From Candidatus Cloacimonadota bacterium (GTDB lineage Bacteria > Cloacimonadota > Cloacimonadia > Cloacimonadales > Cloacimonadaceae), in the NCBI GenBank assembly GCA_029561955.1, contig JAKQWO010000052.1:1-50457 (forward strand): a stretch of DNA of 50,457 nt, given 5' to 3'. Positions 7,984 to 27,303 of this stretch are shown piece by piece (the first letter of the stretch is position 1; every line of letters begins with the position of its first letter). Made by a program: the position numbers and the translations under genes. A model generated the notes under the pieces. The model did no database searches. It was not told where the DNA came from and worked only from the letters and a program-made list of their open reading frames with translations.

Positions 7984-8024
7984 TGTTGTTTCCTGTCTTA
8001 TGGTTGAATTATCATTTGGGGTTC

Positions 8025-8053
8025 ACTAATTCCTTGAAGCCCGATTTTGTCAA
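8025..8053 (-). promoter_or_regulatory. tyrS: Candidate promoter for tyrS-M50 protease
   Basis: TTGACA (minus strand, 8053-8048), a 17-base spacer, then ATTAGT, which matches the -10 consensus poorly (3 of 6). It sits about 42 bases before the tyrS start. The -35 is perfect; the -10 is weak. Confidence 0.35.
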
Positions 8054-8083
8054 GCAATTCAAAATGTCAATACCCCCAATTAT

Positions 8084-8280
8084 CATAAACCGGAACAATG
8101 CACTACACTATTTCCCCAAGATTGAGACTTATCCCCTATCACCCACTTCGCCCTTGCTTAGCCGCAGGGTGATGCCGTGGTGATACTCGGGAAAAACCCG
8201 AGTGGCTCCGAGTAATCACCGGGCGGGTAAGCAAGGAAGAAGCGGGTAAGAGCACGCCACAGCATTGTTCGGTATAAAAT
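8084..8280. repeat. Nested imperfect inverted repeat, about 195 bp (structured RNA or palindromic element)
   Basis: Three layers of inverted repeat share one centre. Outer: GAACAATGC (8093-8101) with GCATTGTTC (8262-8270), extended by CC/GG and A/T pairs. Middle: CCTTGCTTA (8152-8160) with TAAGCAAGG (8228-8236), extended outward through CTTC/GAAG and ACCC/GGGT. Inner: GGTGAT-ACTCGG (8179-8190) with CCGAGT-a-ATCACC (8208-8220); a competing short hairpin CTCGGG/CCCGAG lies inside. Folded, it is a long rod with an asymmetric bubble (8102-8140 against 8248-8261). No convincing protein is encoded. It lies between the terminator of the next secreted-protein gene and the tyrS promoter. It could be a 6S-like RNA, a MITE or a palindromic repeat; the sequence alone does not decide. 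Confidence 0.6.
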
Positions 8281-8322
8281 CCCATGCTGGTTAGCCTGAA
8301 TGTGAGATTAGCCCCAAGAATG

Positions 8323-8352
8323 ATTTAACGGCCCTATAAAGAGCCGTTAAAT
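8323..8352 (-). terminator. Terminator of secreted paralogue 1
   Basis: Perfect 10-bp stem ATTTAACGGC / GCCGTTAAAT with a 10-base loop, 32 bases past the stop of the gene at 8385-10223. The T-run on the minus strand is weak. Confidence 0.6.
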
Positions 8353-8384
8353 CCAGGTAAGCATCATGAAAAGGTCTTGATTGG

Positions 8385-10223
8385 TTATTTAGCTAAAATC
8401 ACCTTGCGGGTGTTGCTCCTACCGTTTGCGGTGAACTTTACCAGGTAGATACCGCTGCCGAGCTGTGGTTCCCACCTGTGTCTATGGAAACCTTCGCTTC
8501 TATTGAACAGTGTAAAATAGTCCACCAACTGCCCCTTGAGATTGAAGACTTCAAAGGTGACGTTAGCGTTTCTTTCTAAATAAAACTCCAGGTGGGTGCT
8601 GGGGTTGAATGGGTTGGGATAGTTGCGGATAAAGCTGGTATCGAAAGGCAGCCCTGGGGTATAATTACCATCGGCTGTCAAGAACACTTGCACCATGACG
8701 GGGCCATGCAAATATACCTGACCTGAAATTGAGACATCTTGCAGCCAATAATGGTAGGTGCCATCGTGATATAGCTCTTTATCCTCAAAGTAATAGACCG
8801 CACCCTGAGAGCTGTTGGCTGATGGAATCAGCGGCGAGACAAGAATGGCATTGGCATCCTGAGAATCCTCAGACCTATAGACGTAAAAGCCGAGGTTATT
8901 GGTCTCAGACTGCGTCTCCCACTGGATCACCACGCTATCATAACCATTGAAATAGGCGTTGAGATAGCTCAAGGTCACGGGCAGGGTAATCACCACGTAA
9001 TAACCGGTAATGGTTCCAGGCGGTTCCACATACAGCACCCCATGAATAGTCAGAGGGTAAAAATCAGGACATAGCGTCAATCCATTGGGGTTGAGCACCG
9101 TGAGGTCATTCACGGTATCTGCATCAGGAGTAGTGGTAAAACAGCCGCTGAATTGATTGGGCACATTCCCACTGTAGGTATAGTTTGCCGCACTGGAATA
9201 CACGGCATAGTTAGTTTGGATGGAGCCTCTGTCGATCTTGCCGTTTACTGTATGGGAAGAAATCCCATCTGCGTGAGCGGTGATGATTGTGGCTCCTTCA
9301 TCCAAATAGAACACCGAAGTTCCGTTGTTCTGCGATGAGATAATATATGAACCAACATCAAGGGCTGACCCCTCGTGCACGCGAAAATAAGGCTCTCCTC
9401 GTGCAGGATTGGTAGCAGAAGTCATGTTCACTTGCGCAGAAAGGGTTAGTGTATGACCGCTAACAACATCAAGAGAGTAGACGGTACCGGGAAGAGTACC
9501 TGTGACCTGATCTTCATCTCCATTGAAGACATAGCTGACGTTGTAAAACCTCGCACCTCCAGTAAGCTGGAAAGCCTCGTTATACCCGCCCACATTGGCA
9601 ATTTCGATCATAAAGCCATTATTGTAGGAATAATAGTTGGACGCCCTCCCAGGACCTGTGATCGTAGCACCTTCCTTGGAAATAATTTTGGCGTTCTGGT
9701 AAGCGTAGAGCGTACCCGCAAAATCTATAATGCCATGGTTTTCCAATACACCCCCAGCTCCCATCGAAGTGCCACCCATCAAATTGATCCTAGAGCTGGT
9801 ATCAGTCGCTGTAACGTTGCCAAGGTTGACAAACTTAGCTCCAGCCAGCACTCTTATCTGCCTAAGCTCATAATTGCCGCTTGAAGTAAAAGCAGCGTTG
9901 TTCCTGACCTCAATTATAGTGCCGGTATTGGGGCTGATAATGTCTCCCGTGATGTGAAAATCCACATCCACATTTATGTTGTGGTTGGCATAGATATCCC
10001 CCTCAAAATCTGGCAAATAGCCGCTCAAGGGCACAGTCGCCGGCACCCAAGCCCCTCCTTGGTAAATTTGCCAGCCCGCGACCCCGCTGACTGTAGCCGG
10101 AGTCGACACAGTCTGATAGTCACCCTCTTGGGGGACTGCATAAGCCAGACAGATCAAAGAAAGCAACGCCCATAAAAGGAGAATGCGTTTCTTAAAAAAA
10201 TCGTCACTTGTAGGTTTGATCAT
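8385..10223 (-). CDS. Secreted beta-helix-like protein with FlgD-like sorting domain (paralogue 1 of 4)
   Basis: 612 aa. A signal peptide of about 29 residues (KKRILLLWALLSLICLAYA) is followed by a GDYQ...W(Q)IY(Q)GG-W-V segment, common to all four paralogues. A long Gly/Asn/Thr-rich region (about 60-400) has short repeating strands like those of right-handed beta-helices; a shared GDEDQVTG turn lies in it. From about 413 comes the LPVTLSYLNA...WETQSETNNLGFYVYRS domain, and from about 530 the FlgD-like domain (NYPNPFNPST) ending RKVILAK. Such C-termini serve as type IX-like sorting signals in Bacteroidota and are abundant in Cloacimonadota; export by that route is inferred. The start has AGGAG 6 bases upstream. 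The ligand or function is unknown; an adhesive or structural role is only a guess. Confidence 0.85.
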   Translation of the reverse strand: MIKPTSDDFFKKRILLLWALLSLICLAYAVPQEGDYQTVSTPATVSGVAGWQIYQGGAWVPATVPLSGYLPDFEGDIYANHNINVDVDFHITGDIISPNTGTIIEVRNNAAFTSSGNYELRQIRVLAGAKFVNLGNVTATDTSSRINLMGGTSMGAGGVLENHGIIDFAGTLYAYQNAKIISKEGATITGPGRASNYYSYNNGFMIEIANVGGYNEAFQLTGGARFYNVSYVFNGDEDQVTGTLPGTVYSLDVVSGHTLTLSAQVNMTSATNPARGEPYFRVHEGSALDVGSYIISSQNNGTSVFYLDEGATIITAHADGISSHTVNGKIDRGSIQTNYAVYSSAANYTYSGNVPNQFSGCFTTTPDADTVNDLTVLNPNGLTLCPDFYPLTIHGVLYVEPPGTITGYYVVITLPVTLSYLNAYFNGYDSVVIQWETQSETNNLGFYVYRSEDSQDANAILVSPLIPSANSSQGAVYYFEDKELYHDGTYHYWLQDVSISGQVYLHGPVMVQVFLTADGNYTPGLPFDTSFIRNYPNPFNPSTHLEFYLERNANVTFEVFNLKGQLVDYFTLFNRSEGFHRHRWEPQLGSGIYLVKFTANGRSNTRKVILAK

Positions 10224-10298
10224 ATTAATCTCCTATTCTATCTCCACATACACGAGGTATGAAACCGGTTATAAATTATGTATTCTTCCATTGGGTGC

Positions 10299-10327
10299 AT
10301 TCTTTCATACCACCTTTATTTTGTCAA
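10299..10327 (-). promoter_or_regulatory. Candidate promoter of secreted paralogue 1
   Basis: TTGACA (10327-10322 on the minus strand), 17-base spacer, AAGAAT (4 of 6 to the -10 consensus). It implies a leader of about 65-70 bases before the start at 10223. Confidence 0.5.
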
Positions 10328-10493
10328 CCACTTATTTCAAGGATTTGAAAATTCTTTAATTTCACAGAGCTGATCGGACATGAGAGCGACAGACCTAACT
10401 CCTTTGATTTAGTAAGTTACGAGGGTGATCCGTATTTGATTCGCAGGTTTAAGAAATTTGTAGAAAGTTCCATCTGAGCCATCCCCAAAAAAG

Positions 10494-10532
10494 GATTTAA
10501 CGGACATCTTGACGATGAATCCGCTAAATCCA
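10494..10532 (-). terminator. Terminator of secreted paralogue 2
   Basis: 12-bp stem GGATTTAACGGA / TCCGCTAAATCC with one non-Watson-Crick pair and a 15-base loop. On the minus strand a CCTTTTTTGG T-run follows directly. It lies 32 bases past the stop at 10564. Confidence 0.8.
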
Positions 10533-10563
10533 GACAGGTATCACTATGAAGGGATGCTAAGTT

Positions 10564-12438
10564 TTACTTGGATAAAACCACTTGGCGGGTATTGTTCTTG
10601 CCGCCTGCGGTAAAGCTGACCAGATAGACACCGCTCTCGAGCTGTGGCTTCCATGCGTATCTATGGAAGCCGCTGGTTTGATGACGCAGGGTAAATTGGT
10701 CTACCAACTGCCCCTTTAGGTTATAGACCTTAAAGTCCACATCTGCACTTTCCTCCAGATAGTATTCCAGTTGTGTGCTGGGATTGAAGGGATTGGGATA
10801 GTTGCGGATCAAGCTGGTCTTGAGTGGAATATCCGGCGTATAATTTGAATCACCTTGCAAGCTCACCTGCGCCATTGCGGGTCCATGCAGCTCCACTTCG
10901 CCGGAGAAGGAGACGTCCTGCAGCCAATAGAAGTAGATGCCATCAACATCGAGGCTGTTATCCTCAAAGAAGTAGGAGGCGCCCTGAGAGCTATTCGCTG
11001 CGGGTATAAGTGCTGATATGATACCAGTATGCTCAGCATCTGGTACATCGGATCTCAGAATGTAAAAGCCCAGGTTATTGGTCTCAGACTGCGTCTCCCA
11101 TCTAAGCGTGACGCTATCAAAACCATTGAAGAAGGCATTGAAATAGCTCAGGGTCACGGGAAGGGTTGGTTGATGGTTAACATAACCGGGACCGCCGTTA
11201 ACCGTACCTTGAAAATCCCCTGTAACGGTCAGAGGTTGAAAGTTAGAGCAAAGCGTCAAACCATTAGGGTTTTCTATGATAAAGTCGTGCACCTTATATG
11301 ACGCTGGATTAGTGGGAGGATCTGTAATAAAACAGCCGCTGAATTGATTCGTCGTATTACCATAGTAGACATAGTTAGCCTCTTCGGAATAGGTGGCATT
11401 GTTGGTTTGAATAGCTCCACTCGTAATCTTGTTACCACTCTTAACCGAGGATATGCCGTTTACATTGGGAGTGCGGATCGTAGCACCGGAATCTAGGACA
11501 AACTGCGCTTCCGAACTTTGATTAACTTTGTCTGTAGTAATTATAAAATTGCCGGTATCAAGGGTTCCGCCGCCCTCCACCTTGAAGGTAGGGGTACCAT
11601 CTTTATGTTCGTTGATCAGAACTATATTCTTGGTCAAAGTTAGATTGGTGCCATCGGCAACGGTCACTTTATAGATATTATCAGGGGTATTGCCGGTGAT
11701 TTGATTTCCTGCGCCACTAAAAACAATACAGGCATTGTGGATGTTCTGATGCCTGGTCAACTGTATAGCTGCACTATAGCCGCCTGGATTTTCAATATAA
11801 ATAGTGGCACCAGCAGCCTTAACATCCAAAAGCGCTCCGCCCTTGATAACTCCATTGGGACGGGATATAATGACAGAATTAGCCTCTTTATCAATAAAGC
11901 CTGCAGTGTCTATCATCCCTCTGTTCTCCAGAGTTCCTCCCGAATCCGGAGTGGTACCCGCCTTCAATAAGATTTTAGAAGTCATGCTCGTTGATGTCAT
12001 GGAACCGTTGTTGATGAAGCGAGCACCCGCTTCGACCGTTAGATTGGCAAGGTCATATCTACTATTCAGATTGGTTCCAAATTCGAAAACCTTGCCTGCT
12101 TTGACGGTTACCAGCTTGTTATTGGTGGAACCAACAAAATCACCACGCAATATGAAGTTGCTGTCGACTTCTATGCCTTCGGCAGCACCCATGAAGATTC
12201 TATTCGTAAAGGGTTGCTGATAAGCCAAGGGTGAAAGGGTTGCATTTACCCAATTGCCTCTATCATAGATCTGCCATCCAGTCGCACTACTGATCTTGGG
12301 TGTAATCTTAGTACCATTTGCCCTATAGTCTCCCTGCTGCGGAATAGGTGAAACTTGCCCATAAGCCAAACAAGCCACCGCGAGCAATACCCAAATTACG
12401 AGCATGCTCTTCCTTAATGTAATAGTATTCTTCTTCAA
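10564..12438 (-). CDS. Secreted beta-helix-like protein with FlgD-like sorting domain (paralogue 2 of 4), TTG start
   Basis: 624 aa from a TTG start at 12438. That codon has AAGGAG 7 bases upstream and gives a normal signal peptide (MKKNTITLRKSMLVIW...LAYG). An in-frame ATG at 12489 would add 17 Arg-rich residues and has no ribosome site, so it is not preferred. Order of parts: signal peptide, QQGDYR and W-Q-I-Y-D segment, strand-rich middle with a GAGNQITG turn, LPVTLSYFNA...WETQSETNNLGFYILRS domain (about 424), FlgD-like domain (about 546, NYPNPFNPST). The C-terminal 200 residues are much closer to the sister genes than the middle is. Function unknown; exported by inference. Confidence 0.83.
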   Translation of the reverse strand: MKKNTITLRKSMLVIWVLLAVACLAYGQVSPIPQQGDYRANGTKITPKISSATGWQIYDRGNWVNATLSPLAYQQPFTNRIFMGAAEGIEVDSNFILRGDFVGSTNNKLVTVKAGKVFEFGTNLNSRYDLANLTVEAGARFINNGSMTSTSMTSKILLKAGTTPDSGGTLENRGMIDTAGFIDKEANSVIISRPNGVIKGGALLDVKAAGATIYIENPGGYSAAIQLTRHQNIHNACIVFSGAGNQITGNTPDNIYKVTVADGTNLTLTKNIVLINEHKDGTPTFKVEGGGTLDTGNFIITTDKVNQSSEAQFVLDSGATIRTPNVNGISSVKSGNKITSGAIQTNNATYSEEANYVYYGNTTNQFSGCFITDPPTNPASYKVHDFIIENPNGLTLCSNFQPLTVTGDFQGTVNGGPGYVNHQPTLPVTLSYFNAFFNGFDSVTLRWETQSETNNLGFYILRSDVPDAEHTGIISALIPAANSSQGASYFFEDNSLDVDGIYFYWLQDVSFSGEVELHGPAMAQVSLQGDSNYTPDIPLKTSLIRNYPNPFNPSTQLEYYLEESADVDFKVYNLKGQLVDQFTLRHQTSGFHRYAWKPQLESGVYLVSFTAGGKNNTRQVVLSK

Positions 12439-12771
12439 TTTACGTCTCCTTGGTGTCGTCCCATCTCTCAAGCACAGCATTGGCCTCATCCATGCTCTTT
12501 GAGATATGTTTTTCTTTGGATTGTCAGTTTTGCCGTATAGTCAAACCCGTAACTACCACGTCGCGCTTCTACATGTATCCAGTCCTAAATTTGTGCATTT
12601 GGGTTTACGGCCTGACGCAGGTCAAGCAATTTGAAACTCATTTTCTGTCAATAACTATTTCACATTTATGGAGTAACGGCTCTTTAATATAATGACATTC
12701 ATGTAGTTACAAAAACAGCCGAGTACGATTTCTGGACATAGCAACACCATCTTTGGGCTGAAATAGAAAAA

Positions 12772-12800
12772 GGATCCAGCGGAATAGTCCCGTTGGATCC
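12772..12800 (-). terminator. Terminator of secreted paralogue 3
   Basis: 10-bp stem GGATCCAGCG / CGTTGGATCC with one G-T pair, then CTTTTTC on the minus strand. It is near-identical in stem sequence to the terminator of paralogue 4 at 15281. Confidence 0.8.
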
Positions 12801-12832
12801 TGACAGGTGTTATTATGAAGGGTTGCTAAGTG

Positions 12833-14662
12833 CTATTTGGTTAAAATCACCTTACGCGCATTGCTCTTGCCTTCTGCGCTAAACTTGATCAGATAGGTTC
12901 CGCTGCCCAGTTGAGGCTCCCAAGTGTATCTGTGTAAGCCGCTGGCTTGGTTGCGCAGGGTAAATTGATCCACAAGCTGCCCTTTCAGGTTATAGACCTT
13001 AAAGCCTACATCTGATCCCTTCTCCAGATAGTATTCCAGTTGCGTGCTGGGATTGAAGGGATTGGGAAAGTTGCGCACCAAACCAGTCTTCAAGGGAATA
13101 TCCGGAGTCTGGCTTGAGCCGGCCAAAAGGGTTACCTGCGCCATGGTGGGCCCATGCAGCTCAATCGCACCGGAGAACGAGACGTCCTGCAGCCAATAGT
13201 AATAGATGCCATCATCATCGAGGCTGTTATCCTCATAGCAGTACGCGGCACCCTGAGAGCTGTTTACTGCCGGGACAAGCGCTGATATCTTACTTGCTTT
13301 GGTGGCATCCGGCTCAGTCGATCTCAACACGTAAAAGCCGAGGTTATTGGTCTCAGTTTGAGTCTCCCATTGCAACACAACGCTGTCAAAACCATTGAAG
13401 AAAGCATTGAAATAGCTCATGGTAACGGGTAGGCTGGGGGAGTCGTCATTAATATAACCCTCAGGGATGTCTGGATCAGTATTCAAATTACCGCTATATG
13501 TACCTGTAACATTTAGCGGCCTGAATCTATTACCAAGGTTCAACATCCCGTCGCTGAGGTTGGTAATGCTATTCACTGTGTTTTCATCAGGATAAGTTAT
13601 AAAGTTACCACTATTCTGTCGTCCACCAGGACCAGTTCCATTGAAGACGTAATTTGCCTTGCTGGAATAAGAGGCATTATCCATTTGAACTGCACCTGTA
13701 TTGATGATGTTTCCGGGGCCTTCGGGGAATGAAGATATACCATCAGCATTGCTAATAACAATAGTAGCACCCTCTTCTAAGGTAAACTGGCTACCATATC
13801 CGCCAGAAATTACCTTGTTATTCGTTTTAAGAGTTGCGCCATTCTTTACAGTGAAGGTATTCAAGTTTACACTATTGGTTAGAGTAAGGTTTGTACCATC
13901 AGCAACAGTCACATGAGCGACTGCTGGGGGTACGGTGCCGGTAACTTGGTCTCCGTCACCATTAAACACGACACTGACATTATCATTGCAGTTTTGACAA
14001 TTCAAATTAATCGCTTCAAAACCAATCGGATTGGCAATTTGGATTTCAGAGCCCGCACCTTTATCCTTGTGGATTCTTCCTGAACCACCAATGGTTCCAG
14101 CCGCACCAACTATAAGCTTAGAGCCTTCGCCCAAGTCTATTTTGCCGTTCATGGTCAAACTACCTTGGTTCTCAAAAATACCACCAGGCTGCGACGTAGT
14201 ACTATCCTCTAGGGTTATATCGCCTTTGTTATGTGTCGCAGATGTCATTGTGCCGTTGTTTATAAAGCGACCGCCTGGGTTTACCACCAGACTGTAATTC
14301 GAAAACTTTCCGTTTGGGCTTGGACCAAGCGTAAAAACAGCCGTTGTAGCGACAGTCATAGTACTACTATTAGGGTTTACTATTTCGCCATTGACTACAC
14401 AACTTAAATCCGCCAAAATAGCGTGATTCATAGTGATCTTTCCTGCAGCAGCTAAAAGAGCGGTTATGTTCCCAGTAGCAGTTGCCCAATCATCAGAACC
14501 GGGCCCAGTGCGTATTTGCCAATCGCCTACTGTACCAGTCCTCGCCGGACTACGATTGGTCCTAAGGTCCCCCACATTTTGCGCGTGAGCCCACCAAACA
14601 CTTAAAAGCAATATCCACGCGACGATAATGCCTTTCTTAACATTGAACGTACACCTGTTCAT
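12833..14662 (-). CDS. Secreted beta-helix-like protein with FlgD-like sorting domain (paralogue 3 of 4)
   Basis: 609 aa. The signal peptide ends near WWAHAQ (about 28). The W-Q-I-R-T-G-P segment replaces the W-x-Y-x-G of the sisters. The middle (about 60-400) is strand-rich with the GDGDQVTG turn and an ISSFPEGPGN insertion. The LPVTMSYFNA...WETQTETNNLGFYVLRS domain begins near 411 and the FlgD-like domain near 529 (NFPNPFNPST rather than NYPNPFNP), ending RKVILTK. The start has AGGAGA 6 bases upstream. It is separated from paralogue 2 by a terminator and about 340 bases, so it is a separate unit. Function not known. Confidence 0.84.
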   Translation of the reverse strand: MNRCTFNVKKGIIVAWILLLSVWWAHAQNVGDLRTNRSPARTGTVGDWQIRTGPGSDDWATATGNITALLAAAGKITMNHAILADLSCVVNGEIVNPNSSTMTVATTAVFTLGPSPNGKFSNYSLVVNPGGRFINNGTMTSATHNKGDITLEDSTTSQPGGIFENQGSLTMNGKIDLGEGSKLIVGAAGTIGGSGRIHKDKGAGSEIQIANPIGFEAINLNCQNCNDNVSVVFNGDGDQVTGTVPPAVAHVTVADGTNLTLTNSVNLNTFTVKNGATLKTNNKVISGGYGSQFTLEEGATIVISNADGISSFPEGPGNIINTGAVQMDNASYSSKANYVFNGTGPGGRQNSGNFITYPDENTVNSITNLSDGMLNLGNRFRPLNVTGTYSGNLNTDPDIPEGYINDDSPSLPVTMSYFNAFFNGFDSVVLQWETQTETNNLGFYVLRSTEPDATKASKISALVPAVNSSQGAAYCYEDNSLDDDGIYYYWLQDVSFSGAIELHGPTMAQVTLLAGSSQTPDIPLKTGLVRNFPNPFNPSTQLEYYLEKGSDVGFKVYNLKGQLVDQFTLRNQASGLHRYTWEPQLGSGTYLIKFSAEGKSNARKVILTK

Positions 14663-14862
14663 CTGTTTCTCCTATTATTGTCCTTTGGTGTCTTGAGGCA
14701 TAGCAATAGGATCAACACTTGCTCAAGGAGCAGTCGCACTGAGTTTCCACTTGGGGTAGAAACTCGGGGCAACAAGACCAGTCCTCAGTTGGTCAGTATA
14801 CATAGAAGTACTACTGTCCTCAATCAGTGCTCCATTGTATTGTTAGCCTATAGACGGTGGAC

Positions 14863-14890
14863 ATTATTACACACCCCCGTTTTCTGTCAA
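14863..14890 (-). promoter_or_regulatory. Candidate promoter of secreted paralogue 3
   Basis: TTGACA (14890-14885, minus strand), 16-base spacer, AATAAT (5 of 6 to the -10 consensus). It predicts an unusually long untranslated leader of about 195 bases before the start at 14662. The same TTGACAGAAAA string occurs upstream of paralogue 2 (12651-12641). Confidence 0.6.
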
Positions 14891-14897
14891 CAGCAAA

Positions 14898-14938
14898 ATG
14901 ATCTAACTCATTGCTCTATGATCTAACTCATTGCTCTA
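14898..14938. repeat. 20-bp tandem direct repeat, two copies
   Basis: The unit ATCTAACTCATTGCTCTATG at 14901-14920 is repeated at 14921-14940 with only the last two bases changed. It lies just upstream of the promoter of paralogue 3. It could be a regulator site or a replication slippage product. Confidence 0.8.
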
Positions 14939-15010
14939 CAATATGATACCACTCCCACAGTCTGCTTGAACAAATCTTACATCTCCTTAGGCTATAGAAG
15001 CTTAGGCAGG

Positions 15011-15074
15011 TGAACCGAAATACGGTTCATAATTGTAAGAATTTTAGAGGGTTAGCAGAAAATGCCCTCTTTTT
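15011..15074 (+). terminator. Two hairpins ending in a plus-strand terminator, possible small RNA end
   Basis: TGAACCG/CGGTTCA (15011-15017 with 15023-15029, 5-base loop) is followed by AGAGGG/CCCTCT (15046-15051 with 15065-15070) and a TTTTT run on the plus strand. Neighbouring genes all run on the minus strand, so a plus-strand terminator has no annotated gene to end. The rest of the 14663-15340 gap shows no gene. Confidence 0.4.
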
Positions 15075-15280
15075 GCAGGGAGCTAAGGATACCGGAGCTA
15101 AAACGATGCACGGAAACGATCTAACAGGCTGTTGCTTATACTCTTACACAACCGTCACGCCTAAAAAGAGCCCGTAGCGATAACCAGAAACAGCCCAGAG
15201 AAAAGCTGATGGCTGCAGCTTGCCAAGCTCTGCCCAAAAAGCCCACGCTTCACAGCCTGAAACGGACAGACACAAAAAAA

Positions 15281-15309
15281 GGATCCAAGGGAAAGTCACC
15301 GTTGGATCC
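15281..15309 (-). terminator. Terminator of secreted paralogue 4
   Basis: Stem GGATCCAA / TTGGATCC with a 13-base loop that can shorten by further G-C pairs. A T7 run follows on the minus strand. 32 bases past the stop at 15341. Confidence 0.82.
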
Positions 15310-15340
15310 TTCAGGTGTTATTATGAAGGGTTGCTAAGTC

Positions 15341-17230
15341 TTATTTGGTTAAAACCACTTTACGGATATTGCTCTTACCATCCGCAGTAAACTTGATCAG
15401 GTAGATGCCGCTGCCCAGTTGCGGCTCCCAAGTGTATCTGTGGAAGCCTTTGTCTTGGTGGCGCAGAGTAAATTGATCCAACTTCTGTCCCTTGAGGTTG
15501 TAGACTTCAAAAGCCACGTCTGATCCTTCTTCCAGATAGTACTCAAGCTGAGTGCTGGGATTGAAGGGATTGGGATAGTTGCGCACCAAACTGGTAGTCA
15601 GAGGCAGGTCCGGCACATGATTTGAACCGGCTCCCAAAGTCACCTGCACCAAAATAGGCCCATGCAAATCCGCTAAACCGGAGAAAGAGACATCCTGCAG
15701 CCAGTAGTAATAGATGCCGTCTTCATACAAATCCTTGTCCTCAAAGTAGTAGGTGGCACCCTGAGAGGTATTGGCTGCCTGGATCAGATCTGATATAACA
15801 CCGGCAGAGGCAGGCTCCAGTTCGGTAGCTCTAAGCACGTAAAAGCCGAGGTTATTGGTCTCAGTCTGCGTCTCCCACTGCAAGACCACGCTATCAAAAC
15901 CATTGAAGTAGCCATTGAAATAGCTCAGGGTGACTGGGAGGGTTTGGCCTTCAACATAGCCCTCTCCGATGCCTGAATCAGTGTTGATATTACCTTGATA
16001 GCCACCATCAACACGTAATGGCCGGAAGTTACCATTATCAAGTAACAACATATCGTCGCTGAGGTTAATAATGTTATTCACATGGTATTTACCTTCACTA
16101 TCTGGATTAGATGTCACGAAAGCACCGCTGTATTGACGTTGACCAGGAGTACCACTGAAAATATAGTTTGCTCCACTGGAGTAGGTAACACTATCAAGCT
16201 GAATGCTGCCCTGATTTATAGGGCCTCCTTGATAAGATGCTTCTGATGATATACCTTGTGGATGTGCTGTAACAATTGTAGATCCTGAATCCAATATAAA
16301 CTCTGTAGTTCCATTCCACTGACGTTTAATCTCATAGGTTCCGACATCAAGAGTTGAATTGCTGGTTACCCATACCATAGGCTCATTTCGTCCAGAGTCG
16401 CTCTCAGGATAAACCGTAATCGTCTTGCTTAAGGTTAGCTTTTGGCCACCGTTAACGATCAAATAAAACAGAGGGACTGGAAGCTTACTGCCGGTAACTT
16501 GATCTTCATCACCATTGAACATGAAGCATGCTCTGTAGACATTATGAGGGCCAGTCAGTTGTATGGCTTCGTCATAACCGCCTACGTTGGCAATTATGAA
16601 TCCAGCACCATCATAAGTCGTGGTAATCTTTCCGGGACCAGTTATACTTGCGCCTTTCTTGGATATGACCCTTCCAAAGGTACTAATAAATAGCTCACCT
16701 TCAATATTGACAGTGCCATGGTTTTCCAGTATACCACCTTCTCCCATATTCGGACCACTGTCTAAGGCTATCCTGGAACCTGTTTCCTTCGATGTGACGG
16801 TGCCATGATTGATAAAATGAGCAAATTGACTTACAACCATTTGCCGCAGCTCAAAGGTGCTATTGGGGCCTAAGCTAAAAGTCGCACCAGTAGCGACGTG
16901 AAGAGTTGTACCAGCATTCGGACTATAGATATTGCCGGCCATGGTAAAGTCAGCATCCACAACCATGTTATGGTCAGCATAGATATTTCCAGTAAATGCA
17001 GGTTGATAATAAGTTAGTGGATGGGGAGCTGTAACCCAGTTGGCCCCATCGTACATTTCCCATTTAACCTTATTTTCAGAAACAACGGCGGATACCAAGG
17101 CAACATTCTCCGTGTTTCTATAGTCGCCCGTTTGTGGTGGCGGTTGATATTGCCCATATGCCATACAGAATAAAGAAAGCAGTACTCCGATGATGAGTAG
17201 CTGTTTCTTAAAGGTAAGGATTGTTTTCAT
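15341..17230 (-). CDS. Secreted beta-helix-like protein with FlgD-like sorting domain (paralogue 4 of 4)
   Basis: 629 aa. The signal peptide ends near FCMAYGQ (about 27). QTGDYR and W-E-M-Y-D-GANWV follow, then a strand-rich middle with the GDEDQVTG turn (about 60-420). The LPVTLSYFNG...WETQTETNNLGFYVLRA domain begins near 430 and the FlgD-like domain near 549 (NYPNPFNPST), ending RKVVLTK. A consensus AGGAGG lies 6 bases before the start. It is first in transcription order of the four-gene array and lies next to the palindrome cluster. Function not known; a surface or extracellular location is inferred from signal peptide plus sorting domain. Confidence 0.85.
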   Translation of the reverse strand: MKTILTFKKQLLIIGVLLSLFCMAYGQYQPPPQTGDYRNTENVALVSAVVSENKVKWEMYDGANWVTAPHPLTYYQPAFTGNIYADHNMVVDADFTMAGNIYSPNAGTTLHVATGATFSLGPNSTFELRQMVVSQFAHFINHGTVTSKETGSRIALDSGPNMGEGGILENHGTVNIEGELFISTFGRVISKKGASITGPGKITTTYDGAGFIIANVGGYDEAIQLTGPHNVYRACFMFNGDEDQVTGSKLPVPLFYLIVNGGQKLTLSKTITVYPESDSGRNEPMVWVTSNSTLDVGTYEIKRQWNGTTEFILDSGSTIVTAHPQGISSEASYQGGPINQGSIQLDSVTYSSGANYIFSGTPGQRQYSGAFVTSNPDSEGKYHVNNIINLSDDMLLLDNGNFRPLRVDGGYQGNINTDSGIGEGYVEGQTLPVTLSYFNGYFNGFDSVVLQWETQTETNNLGFYVLRATELEPASAGVISDLIQAANTSQGATYYFEDKDLYEDGIYYYWLQDVSFSGLADLHGPILVQVTLGAGSNHVPDLPLTTSLVRNYPNPFNPSTQLEYYLEEGSDVAFEVYNLKGQKLDQFTLRHQDKGFHRYTWEPQLGSGIYLIKFTADGKSNIRKVVLTK

Positions 17231-17432
17231 ATCATCCTCCTAAAATTGTTTTGGATATCTAAAGTATTGGTTTGAAAAAGATCTACCCAAGCAGAATCAC
17301 AGTCTCCACAGGTCTCCTGCGCCTGAAGAGCTTCAGTCTTGAGCATTGAGCCTAAGCCTTTTGTAAATAGAATGTCTGAGTCCATTTTCGTTGTCCTCTT
17401 TTTATGGTTTGTTTAGCCTAACGACCGGTGTC

Positions 17433-17460
17433 ACTCTACAGCACTGTGATTTTTGGTCAA
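17433..17460 (-). promoter_or_regulatory. Candidate promoter of secreted paralogue 4
   Basis: TTGACC (17460-17455, minus strand), 16-base spacer, TAGAGT (4 of 6 to the -10 consensus). The implied leader is about 195 bases, like that of paralogue 3. The 17231-17710 stretch holds nothing else recognised. Confidence 0.4.
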
Positions 17461-17710
17461 TTCTTTTTTGAGGTTATGTTGTTATGCTTTAACGGATTAC
17501 TGATTAGACGATTGGTTTATCAGTTTCGTAACCTCATATAATAAGAGGCTTACATACATGAATTTGAATACAGTTCACCGTTCTAAACTGATATGCACTT
17601 TTTGGGGCAAGAGCTCAGATTGGCTGGAAAGAAGGTGAGCAACCTTTTCATGATGCAAGTAAGCGGGATAAGGGGTTGGTTTTTAGGGTGTTATGACGCT
17701 GTTGTGAGCT

Positions 17711-18310
17711 TGTACGATCGCTCGCCGAAGCGCCGCTGTTCTGACAGTGCTGTACGGGCTGGACTGTACGGGCGCTCGCTGAAGCGCCGTAAATGTAGCC
17801 GGCGGTCGCCGCACCGCCGCCAGCCGGCGAAGCTGGCTTCATAATTGCAGGCTGCGCCTGCATTGGTCGCTTCGGCGAGCGACTGTACAGGAGCGCCGTG
17901 TGTAGATGCGGACTGAATTTCTGTAGATGATGAGCTTGCTGTAGTCGTAAGTAATCAAGCTGCGCTTGATGGCGGCGGTGCGGCTAACGCCGGTACCTTC
18001 GGTGCGCGGCGAGCGCCGGCTACAGGTGGTTGGTAGCTTCGGGGTGTGTGCGTGCAGAACGGCGCTTCAGTGAGCGACCGTACTGACGTGTGTATAGATC
18101 GGCGTGCGGCGAGCGCCCGTACAGAAGCGCCGTATTCTGACGCGGACTGAATTTCTGTAGATGGTGTTTTTGCTGTAGTCGTGTGTAATCAAGCTACGCT
18201 TGATGGCGGCGGTTCGGCGACCGCCGGCTACGGGAGATTGGTCGCTTCGGCGAGCGACCGTACTTACGTGTGTGTGTAGATCGGCACTTCGGCGAGCGCC
18301 CGTACAGAAG
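17711..18310. repeat. GC-rich palindromic repeat cluster I
   Basis: At least six copies of a hairpin unit with consensus GGYCGCTTCGGCGAGCGMC followed by YGTACA. Two are inverted (17711-17734, 17765-17789) and the others direct (17865-17889, 18061-18083, 18101-18124, 18240-18263, 18283-18306). Between them lie other small palindromes: TGCAGGC/GCCTGCA (17846-17862) and ATCAAGC/GCTTGAT (near 17955 and 18188). A larger unit of about 234 bp is tandemly duplicated: the GCGGACTGAATTTCTGTAG block begins at 17908 and again at 18142. The base composition is well above that of the neighbours. Open frames across it are made of repeat sequence and are not accepted as genes. Confidence 0.85.
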
Positions 18311-18360
18311 CGTCCGCACAAGGGACACTCCGCAGAGTATCCCTTGTGTCTCGGAATCAT

Positions 18361-19014
18361 TTAGTCATCATGCTGATGGTGTTTAATCACGATACCATCC
18401 ACGAAGTAGATGGTGCTTTCAGCGATATTGGTGGATAGGTCTGCGATTCTTTCCAAGTTGTTGGCAATGCGGATGATGTGAAGATATACCTCAATATGCT
18501 GAGGATTTTCCTTCATCAGTTTGATCATTTGGGCGGTGATGGAGCGTTCGTAGTCGTCCACGATGCTATCATCTTCGCACACTTTATGGGCGAGTTCGGT
18601 GTTTTCATTAGTGAAGGCGTCTAAGCTCTCTTTGAGCATTTTCAGGGCGCTTTCCTTCATTTCTTTGATTTCAGGCATTTGGGCTGGAATGGGGTTTAAG
18701 GAGAGATCGACCACGCTTTCGGCGATGTTTACCGCTTGGTCTCCCAGTCTTTCCAGATCGTTGTTGATCATATAGATCATCAGAATGGTGCGGAGGTCTT
18801 TGGCGGCGGGTTGATGCAGAGCGATGGTGGTGGTGCATTTATTGCCGATTTCCACCTCCAGTTGGTTCACTCTTTTTTCAAAGACGAGCACATCGTCAAA
18901 GCAATTCTTGGTATCGCTACTGAGTCCCATAAAAGCCATGGAAACCATCTTCTCAACTAAGGAAGCCTCGGCCATGAGTAGCTTTTTAAGCTCTATAATC
19001 TTGGTGGTAAGCAT
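18361..19014 (-). CDS. phoU: Phosphate transport system regulator PhoU
   Basis: 217 aa, the family's usual length. PhoU is a cytoplasmic helical-bundle protein that links the Pst transporter to the sensor kinase and holds the Pho response off when phosphate is plentiful. The sequence shows two related three-helix halves, each with the metal-binding-type pattern (NDLERLGDQAVNIAE and NNLERIADLSTNIAE). The start chosen is ATG 19014 (MLTTKI), with AGGAG 5 bases upstream; a longer frame to 19086 would overlap pstB and lacks a site. It is the last gene of the porin-pst operon, 64 bases after pstB, and is followed directly by the palindrome cluster. Confidence 0.93.
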   Translation of the reverse strand: MLTTKIIELKKLLMAEASLVEKMVSMAFMGLSSDTKNCFDDVLVFEKRVNQLEVEIGNKCTTTIALHQPAAKDLRTILMIYMINNDLERLGDQAVNIAESVVDLSLNPIPAQMPEIKEMKESALKMLKESLDAFTNENTELAHKVCEDDSIVDDYERSITAQMIKLMKENPQHIEVYLHIIRIANNLERIADLSTNIAESTIYFVDGIVIKHHQHDD

Positions 19015-19078
19015 CTGTTCTCCTAACATGATTTTTCTTCTAAAATAATTGGGTTGGGCAAAAAAGCAAAGAGTCTCA

Positions 19079-19837
19079 TCAACCAAATGCTCCGGTGAGA
19101 TAGGCTTCGGTGCGGCTATCTTTGGGGACGGTGAATAGCTGGTCGCTGGGGCCGAATTCCACCAGCTCGCCCAAATACATAAATGCCGTATAATCCGAGA
19201 TTCTGCCGGCCTGGGCGATGTTGTGCGTCACGATCAGGATGGTCACCTGATTCTTTAGGTTGACGCACAGTTCCTCGATTTTGGCGGTGGATTGTGGATC
19301 GAGGGCGGAGGTAGGTTCGTCTAGGAGCAACACTTCCGGGTTGTTGGCCAAAGCGCGGGCGATGCAGAGACGCTGTTGCTGTCCACCTGAAAGTGAGAAG
19401 GCGGATTCGTGGAGTCTATCCTTGACTTCATCCCAGAGCCAGGCGTCTTTGAGGCTCTGCTCCACTCGCTGGCTGATTTCATGTTTGGAATGCTTGCCCT
19501 GGATGGCGAGGCCGTAGGCCACGTTGTTGTAGATAGATTTGGGGAAGGGGTTTGGTTTTTGAAACACCATCCCGATGCGGGTGCGGATCTGGGTGACTTG
19601 GGCACTGGGAGCATAGATATCTTCATCGTGCAGCAGTACTTGACCCTTGATCTTGGTGCTGTCTATCAGGTCGTTCATCCGGTTGAAGCACCTCAGCAGG
19701 GTGGACTTGCCGCAACCTGAGGGGCCGATCATGGCGGTGATCTTCTTTTCATAGATCGTGAGATTCACATCTTTGAGGACGTGGTTCGAGCCGAACCAGA
19801 GATTGAGGTTTTCGGTCTTTATCTGTTCTTTTACCAT
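19079..19837 (-). CDS. pstB: Phosphate ABC transporter ATP-binding protein PstB
   Basis: 252 aa. ATPase subunit powering phosphate import at the inner membrane. Walker [10 protein letters not shown] is at 38-46, the ABC signature LSGGQQQR near 148-155, and Walker [12 protein letters not shown] follows, with the switch His in VTHN. These are all intact, and the length is normal for PstB. AAGGA lies 10 bases before the ATG; the start overlaps the end of pstA by 7 bases, which suggests translational coupling. Confidence 0.96.
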
Positions 19838-20685
19838 TTTCTGGTCTTCCTTATTTTATATCTGATAGCGATTGCAATCGCACTAATACTAAGCACTAAA
19901 AACATCAGCACCAGAGCGGTTCCATAGGCGATGGGCACCTGTTTGGCGGCATGAGTTCCTTCTGTCATGAGAGCGTAAATGTGATATGGCAGAGCCATCA
20001 CTTCATCAAATGGGGATTGAGGTAATCTGCGTGAATAGAAAGTGGCAGCGGTGAACATAATCGGCGCCGTCTCGCCTGCCACGCGACCGATGCTGATGAT
20101 GGTTCCGGTGAGGATATTGGGGAAAGCGGTGGGCAGGATAACGCGCAGGATGGTCTGTCTTTCCGTGGCGCCCAGAGCAAGTGACGCTTCTCTGAATTCA
20201 TGGGGCACACCACGCATGGCTTCTTCGGCGGCATTGATGATTACCGGCAAGGCCAGCACAGCCAGGGTAAGCGAACCGGCCAACAGCGAGACGTCCATCT
20301 TCATGAGATTGACAAAGATAGCCATACCAAAGAGGCCATAGATGATGGAGGGCACGCCAGCCAAGGTATTGATGGCGATCTTGACGATCTGCACAAACCA
20401 ACGAGGCTTGCCGTAGCTGACCAAATAGATAGCCGTCAAAATCCCCAGGGGCAAGGCGACTGCGATCGAGACAACTGTGAGCCAAAAGGTGCCGATAATG
20501 GCAGGATAAATGCCACCCGCCGTCATGGCTTCACGGGGTGGACTGCTGATGAATTCCCAGCTCAACACATCGTAGCCCATGTGGAAGATACGTGCCAAAA
20601 ACACGATCAAAAACAGGGCTGTGAAAAACAGCATCAACCCCAAAATAGCTATTCCCAGCGAGTTTTTTGTCTTTCTCACTATCAT
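19831..20685 (-). CDS. pstA: Phosphate ABC transporter permease PstA
   Basis: 284 aa with about six hydrophobic segments. It forms, with PstC, the membrane channel of the high-affinity phosphate importer. The ABC permease coupling loop ([20 protein letters not shown], near the middle) is intact, and the [13 protein letters not shown] stretch is typical of PstA. AAGGAG lies 6 bases before ATG 20685; that start overlaps the pstC stop in an ATGA arrangement. Confidence 0.95.
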
Positions 20686-21551
20686 CTGCTACTCCTTTTG
20701 AGAAATACCAGTTCGGTGATCAGGTTGGTGATAAAAGTGATGATAAAAAGCACGATTGAGATGGCAAAGAGAGATTGATAATGCAAATCTCCGATCACAG
20801 TCTCCCCCATTTCTGCCGCGATGGTGGAGGTCATGGGGCGCACGGAGTCGAAGATGCTTTTGGGGATCTGAGCGCTGCCACCGGACACCATCAAAACCAC
20901 CATGGTTTCGCCAATAGCGCGGCCAAAACCCAAGAGCACGCTGCCGATAATGCCGCTTTTTGCTGCGGGAAGCACGACTCTGGTGATGGTTTCCCACTTG
21001 GTGGCGCCCAGGGCAAAGGATGCTTCCCTGAGGCTCTTGGGCACGGTGGAGATGGCATCTTCAGACATCGATGCGATAATCGGCACCACCATCATCCCCA
21101 AGATAATCGAAGAAGAAAAGATATTGAGCCCCGTCTGCAAATCTAACCATTCACGCAGCAGCGGAGCCAGGAAAGCCATACCGAAGAGTCCGTAGACCAC
21201 AGAAGGGATGCTGGCCAGCAGCTCGATCACCGGCTTGGCAATTTCTCTGAGTTTGGGGCTGGCCACCTCCGAGATAAAGATGGCTGAGCCCAAGCCCAGA
21301 GGTATTGCTATGAGCAAAGCCCCCAGGGTCACATAAAAGGAACCCAAAAGCAGGGTGTAAATGCCAAATTCCGGCTCAGCATGTGTGGGATACCACTCAG
21401 TGCTGGTGAGGAACTCCTTGATGGAGACCACATTAAAGAGGGGCAATCCCTCCCGAAAGATACTATAGATTATCCCAAAGAGAAACACTATTACAAAAAG
21501 GGACGCCACGTAGGTGATCCCTTTGAATAGCTTATCTTTATAGCTGATCAT
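20682..21551 (-). CDS. pstC: Phosphate ABC transporter permease PstC
   Basis: 289 aa with about six membrane segments, partner of PstA. The coupling-loop pattern EDAISTVPKSLREASFALGAT and the following GRAIGETMVVLMVSGG are characteristic of PstC. It follows pstS after 71 bases that contain a strong hairpin, so its expression may be set below that of the binding protein. AGAGGA lies upstream of the ATG. Confidence 0.95.
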   Translation of the reverse strand: MISYKDKLFKGITYVASLFVIVFLFGIIYSIFREGLPLFNVVSIKEFLTSTEWYPTHAEPEFGIYTLLLGSFYVTLGALLIAIPLGLGSAIFISEVASPKLREIAKPVIELLASIPSVVYGLFGMAFLAPLLREWLDLQTGLNIFSSSIILGMMVVPIIASMSEDAISTVPKSLREASFALGATKWETITRVVLPAAKSGIIGSVLLGFGRAIGETMVVLMVSGGSAQIPKSIFDSVRPMTSTIAAEMGETVIGDLHYQSLFAISIVLFIITFITNLITELVFLKRSSR

Positions 21552-21573
21552 GAAAATCCTCTAAGTAAACACG

Positions 21574-21606
21574 GGTGGTGCAAGGCATTATCCGCCCTGC
21601 ACCACC
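21574..21606 (-). promoter_or_regulatory. Intercistronic hairpin between pstS and pstC
   Basis: Stem GGTGGTGCA / TGCACCACC with three further G-C pairs after a mismatch and a 7-base loop. No T-run follows, so it is more likely an mRNA-stabilising or partial-termination hairpin. That would suit higher output of the binding protein than of the membrane subunits, a common arrangement in ABC operons. Confidence 0.6.
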
Positions 21607-21622
21607 ATTGAAAGGGTGAATT

Positions 21623-22444
21623 TTAGTTGAGACTGATGAATCCCTGCTTCTTGACAATCTCCTGTCCTTCTGCAGATTGGATGAAGACGATGAACTTGCC
21701 GATCTCACCTTTGGCTTTGCCATTGGTGAACATATACAGCTTGCGAGAGAGGGGATAGCTGGCGTTTTTGATCGTAGCTTCGGTGGGAGTAACGCCGGCG
21801 ACCTGAATCACTTTGACGTCCTTATTCACATAACCCAGACCGGCATATCCGATTGCGCCGGGAGTGCTGGCCACGGTGGTAACAACAGCATTGTTGGAAG
21901 CGAGCATCTGAGCGGTTCCATCCACTTTGGCGCTCTTGAGGGCTTTTTCGTTGAACACTTCAAAGGTTCCGGAGGCCACGTCACGGGAGATGATCACGAT
22001 GGGAAGATTGGGGCCGCCAACCTTATTCCAGTTTTTGATCTTGCCGGTGTAGATGTCACGGATCTGAGCAACGGTGAGGTTTTTCACGGTATTGCTGGGG
22101 TGCACGACCATGGCGATTCCATCGTTGGCGATAGCATAGAAAGAAGGACTGATGCCTTTGGATTTGCAGGCGGCTATCTCTTTGGATTTCATGGGACGTG
22201 AAGAATTGGCGATGTCGACTGTTCCATTTTGCAGAGCAGCCACGCCCACACCGGAACCACCACCGCGCACTGAGATGTTGATGTTGGGATATTTGTCCAT
22301 ATAGGCTTCAGCAGCGGCTTGAGCTATGGGCAACACAGTGGTCGAACCAGAAGTGGTGATCTGGTTACTTCTCTTTTGGGCAGAGAGGGGCAGGGTCAGA
22401 AGCAGAGCTACGACGATGCTAAGTAGAATTATGGTTTTCTTCAT
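21623..22444 (-). CDS. pstS: Phosphate ABC transporter substrate-binding protein PstS
   Basis: 273 aa. A cleavable signal peptide (about 1-22, ending LPLSAQ) sends it to the periplasm. The ligand-site pattern of PstS proteins is present: TTSGSTTVLPIAQAAAEAY near the mature N-terminus, RGGGSGVG, then SSRPMKSKE, and the RDVASGTFEVF loop. AAGGAG lies 7 bases before the ATG. It comes 11 bases after the porin gene, so phosphate passes from porin to binding protein within one operon. There is no lipobox Cys, so it is probably soluble. Confidence 0.95.
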   Translation of the reverse strand: MKKTIILLSIVVALLLTLPLSAQKRSNQITTSGSTTVLPIAQAAAEAYMDKYPNINISVRGGGSGVGVAALQNGTVDIANSSRPMKSKEIAACKSKGISPSFYAIANDGIAMVVHPSNTVKNLTVAQIRDIYTGKIKNWNKVGGPNLPIVIISRDVASGTFEVFNEKALKSAKVDGTAQMLASNNAVVTTVASTPGAIGYAGLGYVNKDVKVIQVAGVTPTEATIKNASYPLSRKLYMFTNGKAKGEIGKFIVFIQSAEGQEIVKKQGFISLN

Positions 22445-22455
22445 TATAGAACTCC

Positions 22456-23562: not shown

Positions 23563-23608
23563 GAAGGTTCTCCTTGTTTGCATGATGACTTGTTATACGG
23601 AAGAAATG

Positions 23609-23648
23609 TTAAGATTTTATAAAGGCGAAGTTAAGAATCCTTTAAGAA
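23609..23648 (-). promoter_or_regulatory. Candidate Pho box: 11-bp phased TTCTTAA repeats upstream of the porin-pst operon
   Basis: On the minus strand TTCTTAA occurs at 23648-23642 and again exactly 11 bases on at 23637-23631. ATCTTAA lies 22 bases further at 23615-23609, and a degenerate copy falls on the skipped 11-base step. PhoB-type regulators bind direct repeats with 11-bp spacing. The same TTAAGAA word occurs once before the phoB-like gene (24630-24636). The box is about 50-85 bases before the porin start, and the regulator is encoded next door. Confidence 0.5.
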
Positions 23649-23806
23649 GTGCTAAGCTGTGTGTGAGTGGAGTGTTAGGTTTTTTATCCACGAAGGGGGC
23701 GACTTCGTCGCAGTCGTCAGTCGTCTGTAGTCAGTCGCTTCGCTGGAGGAGGAGGTGCGGGTACTTGTGGTGTGGATGCGCATGGCTTTGTGGCTTATTT
23801 TTAGTC

Positions 23807-23834
23807 CACGAATTACACGAATTAACACGAATTA
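23807..23834. repeat. Three near-tandem CACGAATTA repeats
   Basis: CACGAATTA at 23807-23815, 23816-23824 and 23826-23834. The surrounding 23650-23860 stretch is otherwise low-complexity (repeated CAGTCG-type words near 23710-23750) and has no gene. Confidence 0.8.
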
Positions 23835-23869
23835 TAGGGACAGCTACTTTTATACTTGCGGTCGTCGAT

Positions 23870-24075
23870 GCGACCCTGTACAGGCGGTCGCTGAACCGAC
23901 CTTTTTATGTAGCCGGCGTTAGACGTAGCGCCGCAATCAAGCGAAGCTTGATTCTTAACGCAGTTAAGCCGCTTTATACAGCAGTTCATCCGGTGCTCTT
24001 CGCTTGTATGAGCGGCTGAACTTGCTGGTCGCTTCGGCGAGCGCCTGTACACGCTACGAGCGATCGTACAAGGTG
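23870..24075. repeat. Palindromic repeat cluster II
   Basis: It shares the units of cluster I: an inverted copy (CTGTACAGGCGGTCGCTGAAC, from 23874), the word TGTAGCCGGCG (from 23905), the palindrome AATCAAGC/GCTTGATT (near 23934-23952) and a direct GGTCGCTTCGGCGAGCGCC-TGTAC copy at 24027-24050. It lies in the divergent region between the porin operon and the phoB-like gene. Confidence 0.75.
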
Positions 24076-24084
24076 TCATTTGGG

Positions 24085-24430: not shown

Positions 24431-24442
24431 AGCAGTTGTCAG

Positions 24443-24610: not shown

Positions 24611-24721
24611 AGCTTGACTGAGCTGATTGTTAAGAATTATTGATGCCAAAATAACACTTTTCACTTGTCAAAAACAGCGGCTTTAGAAAAGAGTGTATTC
24701 AACCAATTTGAGGAGTATTTC

Positions 24722-26736: not shown

Positions 26737-26744
26737 AATCAACC

Positions 26745-27236: not shown

Positions 27237-27303
27237 GCGGAAGAGCAAAAAAGTGGTGGACAAAAAAAGTGGACATTATTAAATGGAATAAAGGAGGTAA
27301 GTC

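What the first reader, a model, noticed from the sequence alone, without database searches (positions are those of the whole stretch)
8385..17230. Four-gene array of secreted paralogues with conserved ends and diverged middles
Each gene has its own signal peptide, W-x-Y segment, strand-rich variable middle, shared LPVTxSY...WETQ(S/T)ETNNLGFY domain and FlgD-like sorting domain. The 3' ends stay very similar at base level (for example the GAGGTTATTGGTCTCAG block occurs near 8893, 13341 and 15848, with one change near 11075), whereas the middles differ. This is the pattern expected of a repertoire where the display and export module is fixed and the exposed part varies.
Basis: partly seen in the sequence, partly recalled or inferred. 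Interest (0 to 1): 0.6.

Follow-up and report, generated by a model that had tools for sequence, protein, structure and literature searches.

The report
Recombining surface genes with shared tails
Four neighbouring genes in an uncultured bacterium encode secreted surface proteins with shared export tails and different bodies, and comparison with related species shows that the pieces have been reshuffled among the copies rather than inherited whole.

Summary
Confirmed: four intact tandem paralogues (46-53% aa to the first). Each has a signal-peptide-like helix, a beta-helix body, an Fn3-like domain and a type IX secretion (T9SS) type A sorting domain. The genome is a Cloacimonadota MAG with about 100 T9SS tails and SprA.

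A congener (G003) has at least four copies at the same locus. N-terminal segments are mostly collinear orthologues, but the second half of the beta-helix pairs differently, and the 3' ends of two copies resemble each other more than any orthologue. Trees for these segments reject one another (12 of 12 cross tests p<0.05; 6 of 6 with a second alignment).

A second array family replicates it. A gene pair 89% identical in nucleotides over the body falls to 74% over the last 96 codons, where one partner is 91-93% identical to neighbours with unrelated-looking bodies. The break lies 14 residues before the sorting domain's NPFN motif.

So the fixed-tail, variable-body reading is largely right and recombination is demonstrated between species. 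Population-level variation, antigenic switching and ligands are not shown. Two other arrays show no homogenisation.

The parts
8385..10223 (-). Array gene 1 (W1, 612 aa): signal-peptide-like helix, beta-helix body, Fn3-like domain, T9SS sorting domain
10564..12489 (-). Array gene 2 (W2, 641 aa as listed; start probably further in)
12833..14662 (-). Array gene 3 (W3, 609 aa)
15341..17230 (-). Array gene 4 (W4, 629 aa), nearest to phoU
   Evidence: AlphaFold2 model mean pLDDT 84.7
17153..17230 (-). W4 signal-peptide-like helix (residues 1-26)
   Evidence: Predicted helix 2-26; first window about 89% aa to Jb against 69% to Ja
15956..17143 (-). W4 body (residues 30-425), predicted beta-helix
   Evidence: Model of this stretch alone: pLDDT 88.9, pTM 0.89, nearly all strands; aligns to solved beta-helices, e.g. 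6f7k Z 14.2, 5.7 A over 295 residues
15635..15943 (-). W4 Fn3-like domain (residues 430-532), containing LPVTLSYF...WETQTETNNLGFY
   Evidence: 5e4s Z 10.0, 2.6 A over 97 residues
15344..15601 (-). W4 T9SS type A sorting domain (residues 544-629)
   Evidence: TIGR04183; PorU sorting domain 6za2 Z 9.3, 2.7 A over 85 residues
8388..8984 (-). Conserved 3' module of W1 (Fn3 + sorting domain)
10567..11163 (-). Conserved 3' module of W2
12836..13432 (-). Conserved 3' module of W3
15264..15340 (-). Non-coding 3' flank of W4 with a terminator-like inverted repeat; about the first 45 nt nearly identical to that of W3 (12755-12832)
   Evidence: (D14)
7996..27249 (.). Block holding the array, phoU, pst genes, a porin O/P-like gene, and a response regulator/histidine kinase pair; absent from the contiguous locus of congener G001

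Best explanation
The four genes are tandem T9SS cargo genes for beta-helix surface proteins. Each has its own promoter-like upstream region (inferred), is exported through Sec and the T9SS by its signal peptide and sorting domain, and is anchored on or released at the cell surface with the beta-helix outward (inferred from the family). The copies recombine with one another. Homologous recombination (gene conversion and/or unequal crossing-over) is seeded in the stretches of highest DNA identity, the 3' Fn3-sorting module and to a lesser extent the signal-peptide region. It re-copies the tail between neighbours and swaps beta-helix halves between copies, so the tails stay alike within a genome while the bodies diverge and become mosaic (shown between species; the molecular event is inferred). 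The beta-helix most likely binds or processes a polymer or a surface (inferred, weak).
For: Syntenic array in G003 (Ja, Jb, Jc and a fourth copy cut by the contig end) beside phoU-pst, flanks 83-85% nt. Segment-wise partners differ: columns 100-260 give W4+Ja (bootstrap 99) and W3+Jc; columns 400-530 give W4+Jb and W2+Jc; the 3' end gives Ja+Jb (94). All 12 of 12 cross tests reject the other segments' trees by AU at p<0.05; with a second aligner, ungapped columns and another model, 6 of 6 at p<=0.00053. Permutation tests: four key triplets p=2e-5 or lower. Synonymous differences: W4-Ja 0.49 in the N segment and W4-Jb 0.48 in columns 400-530, like flanking pst/phoU orthologues (0.41-0.47), against 0.78 and 0.70 for the reverse pairings; Ja-Jb 0.28 at the 3' end. 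At amino-acid-invariant 3'-end positions codons match more within genomes (0.63 and 0.70) than between (0.55); 1 of 35 label partitions reaches this. Homogeneity runs into non-coding DNA past the stop: Jb/Jc about 74 nt, W3/W4 about 45 nt. Independent replicate: G0d-G2e bodies 89.4% nt, last 96 codons 74.0%, while G2e is 91.3-93.1% to G2b/c/d there and 46.6-50.9% in the body; tract p at the floor of 1e-5 against each of 3 donors. SprA in the genome.
Against: N-terminal segments are mostly collinear orthologues, so recombination is not rampant. Two further arrays (G000:C47, 3 genes; G003:C10 near 119-123 kb, 3 genes) show 3' ends of only 69-72% nt within the array, no better than between genomes. 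Synonymous differences of ordinary T9SS cargo orthologues range from 0.31 to 0.63, so the W-J 3'-end values of 0.65-0.75 are not by themselves proof of replacement. Direction is ambiguous in the G0d/G2e case: a body imported into a gene with a resident tail would look the same, and the body's pS of 0.26 is below the species level. All sequences are MAGs. No secretion, expression or binding data exist here.
Confidence: 0.75

Rival explanations
1. Ordinary tandem duplication followed by divergence, with purifying selection keeping the tails alike. No exchange is needed.
For: Tails are under stronger constraint (dN 0.11-0.30 against up to 0.95 in bodies). N-terminal segments are collinear between the two species. 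Two arrays lack homogenisation.
Against: Constraint on protein cannot lower synonymous differences (Ja-Jb 0.28 at the 3' end against 0.78 in the N segment), make orthologues less alike than paralogues only in the tail (G0d/G2e 74% against G2e/G2d 93%), equalise DNA past the stop codon, or make segment trees reject each other.
Confidence: 0.12
2. A true diversity-generating or antigenic-variation system: frequent recombination or switching within a population, driven by a host, phage or grazer.
For: Architecture (fixed ends, variable exposed middle, tandem copies, mosaic joints) matches the H. pylori Bab type of locus (PMC4552749, passages read). Several other arrays share the same module in relatives.
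Against: No within-population data. All five G000 copies are open, with no silent-cassette layout. No simple-repeat tract was seen in the coding starts that I read, but phase variation was not tested systematically. Orthology of N segments has survived speciation.
Confidence: 0.2
3. The mosaics are chimeric assemblies of near-identical tandem paralogues.
For: All genomes are MAGs; the G003 contig breaks inside the array with a run of C.
Against: The longest exact match between window copies is 15-32 nt, and 41-64 nt in G003, whose contig name carries k201. The joints lie inside diverged stretches. Two unrelated assemblies (G003, G002) show the pattern.
Confidence: 0.06

Closest known systems
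T9SS type A cargo proteins (TIGR04183 / PF18962), as in Porphyromonas and other FCB-group bacteria
   Same: Signal-peptide-like start, C-terminal Ig-like sorting domain with PorU-like fold, SprA in the genome. PMC11285876 (passages read) says T9SSs may be present in Cloacimonadota.
   Different: Tandem array with recombining tails; bodies have no Pfam or NCBIfam match.
Porphyromonas gingivalis gingipain/Kgp and other surface-protein allele exchange (PMC5266723, passages read)
   Same: Surface-protein diversity through domain rearrangement and allelic exchange in a T9SS bacterium.
   Different: There it is mainly described among strains by allelic exchange; here it is among tandem paralogues, and in one case the tract coincides with the sorting domain.
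Helicobacter pylori babA/babB/babC (PMC4552749, passages read)
   Same: Nearly identical ends, divergent middle, gene conversion producing chimeras. Works alike.
   Different: Different secretion route and fold (beta-barrel outer membrane proteins, recalled). babB has CT-repeat phase variation; here no phase variation is shown.
Beta-helix adhesins and polysaccharide-active beta-helices (SRRP, antigen 43, tailspikes, PL6 lyases)
   Same: Fold class of the body: Z 11-14 over 230-310 residues.
   Different: Sequence identity 5-16%; no Foldseek match at E<=0.001; fold class does not give function.

Membership tests
T9SS type A cargo | C-terminal sorting domain over the curated cut-off | tested here: met
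   TIGR04183 39.8-47.4 bits, cut-off 23, 4 of 4
T9SS type A cargo | Sorting domain fold like solved T9SS domains | tested here: met
   W4 residues 544-629 against PorU 6za2: Z 9.3, 2.7 A, 85 residues; Z is moderate and Fn3/Ig domains score alike
T9SS type A cargo | T9SS translocon in the genome | tested here: met
   SprA_N in a 2102-aa frame at G000:C51; other components not searched
T9SS type A cargo | N-terminal signal peptide | tested here: inconclusive
   Hydrophobic helix 2-26 then a small-residue A-x-G/A end; no signal-peptide predictor at hand
T9SS type A cargo | Actual secretion and tail cleavage | not testable with these tools
   needs bench work
Gene-conversion surface family (Bab-like) | Recombination among paralogues | tested here: met
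   AU tests 12 of 12 and 6 of 6; tracts
Gene-conversion surface family (Bab-like) | Recombinants segregating within a population | not testable with these tools
   one genome per species is held
Antigenic variation with silent cassettes | Promoterless or partial donor copies beside one expression site | tested here: not met
   5 of 5 G000 full-length copies are open frames; the frameshifted single copy in G003:C10 is not in the array
Phase-variable genes | Simple-sequence tract or invertible promoter | not tested
   no dedicated search made

The most novel reading that the evidence does not exclude
In this Cloacimonadota lineage the T9SS address tags behave as a shared, genome-wide pool: gene conversion re-copies the sorting domain (with or without the Fn3 domain) and the signal peptide from gene to gene across cargo with unrelated bodies. 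Export tags therefore evolve in concert with the genome's own translocon while bodies evolve and shuffle separately, which makes the tandem arrays engines for new surface proteins.
Probability: 0.3. Interest if true: 0.7.

Novelty: new variant of a known kind. Interest (0 to 1): 0.5.

Why it matters
Recombining paralogous surface proteins are known, but here the exchange can be resolved to protein modules in a secretion system where the tag is a separate C-terminal domain, in an uncultured phylum. A tract that coincides with the sorting domain suggests that the tag can spread between unrelated cargo by homologous recombination. That would explain how organisms with about a hundred T9SS cargo keep their tags compatible with one translocon, and how new cargo are made. 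My literature searches (open PMC papers only) listed no description of this for Cloacimonadota or for T9SS sorting domains.

Tried and rejected
Absolute synonymous divergence as sole proof that 3' ends were replaced: dropped after the control, because C25 peptidase orthologues reach 0.62-0.63 in their tails.

Purifying selection alone: rejected on synonymous, non-coding and tree evidence.

Generality: the second-family test over 13 genes in three genomes is mixed. Within-genome codon identity is 0.653 against 0.604 between (permutation p 0.0062), but this is driven by G002 (0.731); G000 is 0.583 and G003 0.624. The G034:C27 array has 3' ends at 73-83% nt with no outgroup comparison made.

Triplet scan: 58 of 504 ordered triplets reached the floor of 2000 permutations. 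The floor cannot reach Bonferroni and the test reacts to rate differences along the gene, so I rely on the AU tests and on the named triplets.

Fold search with the whole W4 model covered only residues 430-629. The body was therefore predicted alone; Foldseek gave no match at E<=0.001, and the VIA-align Z values of 10-14 indicate the beta-helix class only.

Rows dropped before counts: the segment trees used 9 sequences, leaving out the two more distant single copies (G032, G007) and both halves of the frameshifted G003:C10 copy. The codon-identity test used 7 sequences (W1-4, Ja-c), leaving out the C61 and G002 copies. One search left out two ORFs with other tails (in L094 and L096) and all of L097. 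One search's upstream row for W2 used an assumed inner start and is not relied on.

Literature searches returned nothing; two returned nothing relevant.
Full report
What is there. The window (G000:C76, 2.13 Mb genome, 99.5% complete) holds four tandem genes on the minus strand at 8385-17230, between tyrS (6781-7983) and phoU (18361-19086). The products share 46-53% identity with the first. Pfam and NCBIfam recognise only the T9SS type A sorting domain and FlgD-Ig at the C-terminus. A fifth full-length copy lies on contig C61. Thirteen more proteins in the genome match about the last 200 residues only, and weaker matches are limited to the tail. The genome has 104 places matching the sorting domain and one SprA.

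Which organism. G003's array contig has the same length and match as JAKOXG010000012.1 (Candidatus Cloacimonadota bacterium), and G002's has those of DGFM01000007.1 (Cloacimonetes bacterium UBA3900). Both are of the window's genus. The identity of records is inferred from lengths and matched places.

Architecture. AlphaFold2 gives W4 a helix 2-26, a body made of strands, and two beta-sandwich domains (pLDDT 84.7). Residues 428-532 resemble Fn3 (5e4s Z 10.0, 2.6 A, 97 residues) and 544-629 the PorU sorting domain (6za2 Z 9.3, 2.7 A, 85 residues). The body alone is a confident beta-helix (pLDDT 88.9, pTM 0.89), structurally nearest to tailspikes, SRRP adhesins and alginate-active enzymes (Z 10-14, 5-6 A, 5-16% identity). 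That names a fold class, not a function.

Orthologous array. In G003 the same locus beside phoU-pst carries Ja, Jb, Jc and the first 126 readable residues of a fourth copy, Jd, at the contig end. Of 60 genomes searched with W4 at E<=1e-60, 5 matched. With the 13-row alignment, 40 of 117 genomes matched at E<=1e-60, mostly with the C-terminal 200 residues alone. Matches along the whole model occur in 7 of those genomes (one of the G003 places as two halves), and tandem full-length arrays only in G000 and G003. A few relatives (G035, G023, G014) match the body without the tail, so body and tail are separable. In congener G001 the contiguous locus lacks window 7996-27249, that is the array with phoU, pst, porin and two-component genes; 240 bp remain. 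Whether this is gain or loss is unknown.

Mosaic structure. Pairwise profiles show W4 at 67-76% aa to Ja over the first third, 32-58% in the middle and about 80% at the end. To Jb it is 89% at the signal peptide, 35-50% through most of the first half and 63-72% in columns 420-500. N-terminal trees pair W4-Ja (98), W2-Jd (89), W3-Jc (69) and, for the separate syntenic copy, C61-C10 (92), nearly collinear with Jb as the odd one out. Columns 400-530 pair W4-Jb (91) and W2-Jc (89). The 3' end pairs Ja-Jb (94). AU tests reject every cross assignment among four segments (12 of 12, p<0.05; among N, mid2b and 3' end p<=0.0024). With E-INS-i, ungapped columns and WAG the result stands (6 of 6, p<=0.00053). 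Longest exact matches between copies of 15-64 nt make assembly chimeras unlikely.

Concerted tails. Ja-Jb synonymous difference is 0.28 in the 3' end against 0.78 in the N segment. At 88 amino-acid-invariant 3'-end columns, codon identity is 0.63 within the window array, 0.70 within G003 and 0.55 between; at 70 invariant columns elsewhere the excess is absent (-0.04). Jb and Jc share about 74 nt of terminator DNA past the stop, and W3 and W4 about 45 nt, which protein-level selection does not explain.

Replicate in another family. Cargo with the same C-terminal module but other bodies form arrays in G002:C34 (5 genes), G000:C47 (3), G000:C75 (2 whole) and G003:C10 (3). G0d (G000:C75) and G2e (G002:C34) are 89.4% identical in nucleotides up to column 682, 83.2% to 792 and 74.0% in the last 96 codons. 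G2e against G2d runs 50.9, 76.8 and 93.1%. The tract is columns 792-884 of 888 with donors G2d or G2c and 781-884 with G2b, p at the floor of 1e-5 each. It begins at residue 699 of 794; NPFN is at 713. Signal-peptide codons of G2b, c and d are also 84-90% alike while bodies are about 50%. Control: in two ordinary T9SS cargo orthologues (window 33602-37501; C25 peptidase 458-5956) tails are not more diverged than bodies beyond error.

Limits. The G0d/G2e body (pS 0.26) is nearer than ordinary cargo orthologues (0.55-0.58), so part of it may itself have moved between species, and the direction of exchange at the tail is open. G000:C47 and G003:C10 arrays show no tail homogenisation (69-72% nt). 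All data are one MAG per species; nothing here shows variation within a population or what the beta-helices bind.

Comparison with the known. It works like H. pylori bab genes (PMC4552749, passages read) and like surface-protein exchange in P. gingivalis (PMC5266723, passages read). By tested features it belongs to T9SS cargo. It is not a silent-cassette system on present evidence. PMC11285876 (passages) and PMC8542988 (passages) already place T9SS-type C-terminal domains in Cloacimonadota; neither passage describes arrays or recombination.

Verdict. Observation confirmed. The fixed-tail, variable-body reading is supported and strengthened by demonstrated recombination; the population-level repertoire is unproven. 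New variant of a known kind, interest 0.5.

Noticed in passing
window 17719-18315, 24030-24598: Palindromic G+C-rich repeat CGCTTCGGCGAGCG and longer repeats around it: 7 matches with at most one mismatch, all between 17.7 and 24.6 kb, 0 expected. They flank the phoU-pst genes.
   Followed up: partly
window 7996-27249: Block with the array, phoU-pst, a porin O/P-like gene and a response regulator/histidine kinase pair is missing as a unit in congener G001.
   Followed up: partly
window 458-5956: 1832-aa gingipain-like C25 peptidase with its own T9SS tail; a 75% identical paralogue lies at G000:C35:65435-70918.
   Followed up: partly
L040:8443-10276: The G003 copy syntenic with the G000:C61 copy is split into two overlapping frames, a pseudogene or a sequence error.
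   Followed up: no
L039:1-26: The G003 array contig ends in a run of about 24 C inside the fourth copy, probably an assembly artefact.
   Followed up: no
L098:1969-4350 and L095:15890-18274: Cargo body 89% nt identical between species with pS 0.26, lower than ordinary cargo orthologues; possible transfer between species.
   Followed up: partly
upstream of W2, W3, W4 and of Ja, Jb, Jc: A shared TTGAC element about 200 nt before the start suggests separate promoters and a long leader.
   Followed up: no
window 8144-8240: Inverted repeat downstream of W1 that recurs in both orientations against L039:1075-1176 at 76-81%.
   Followed up: no
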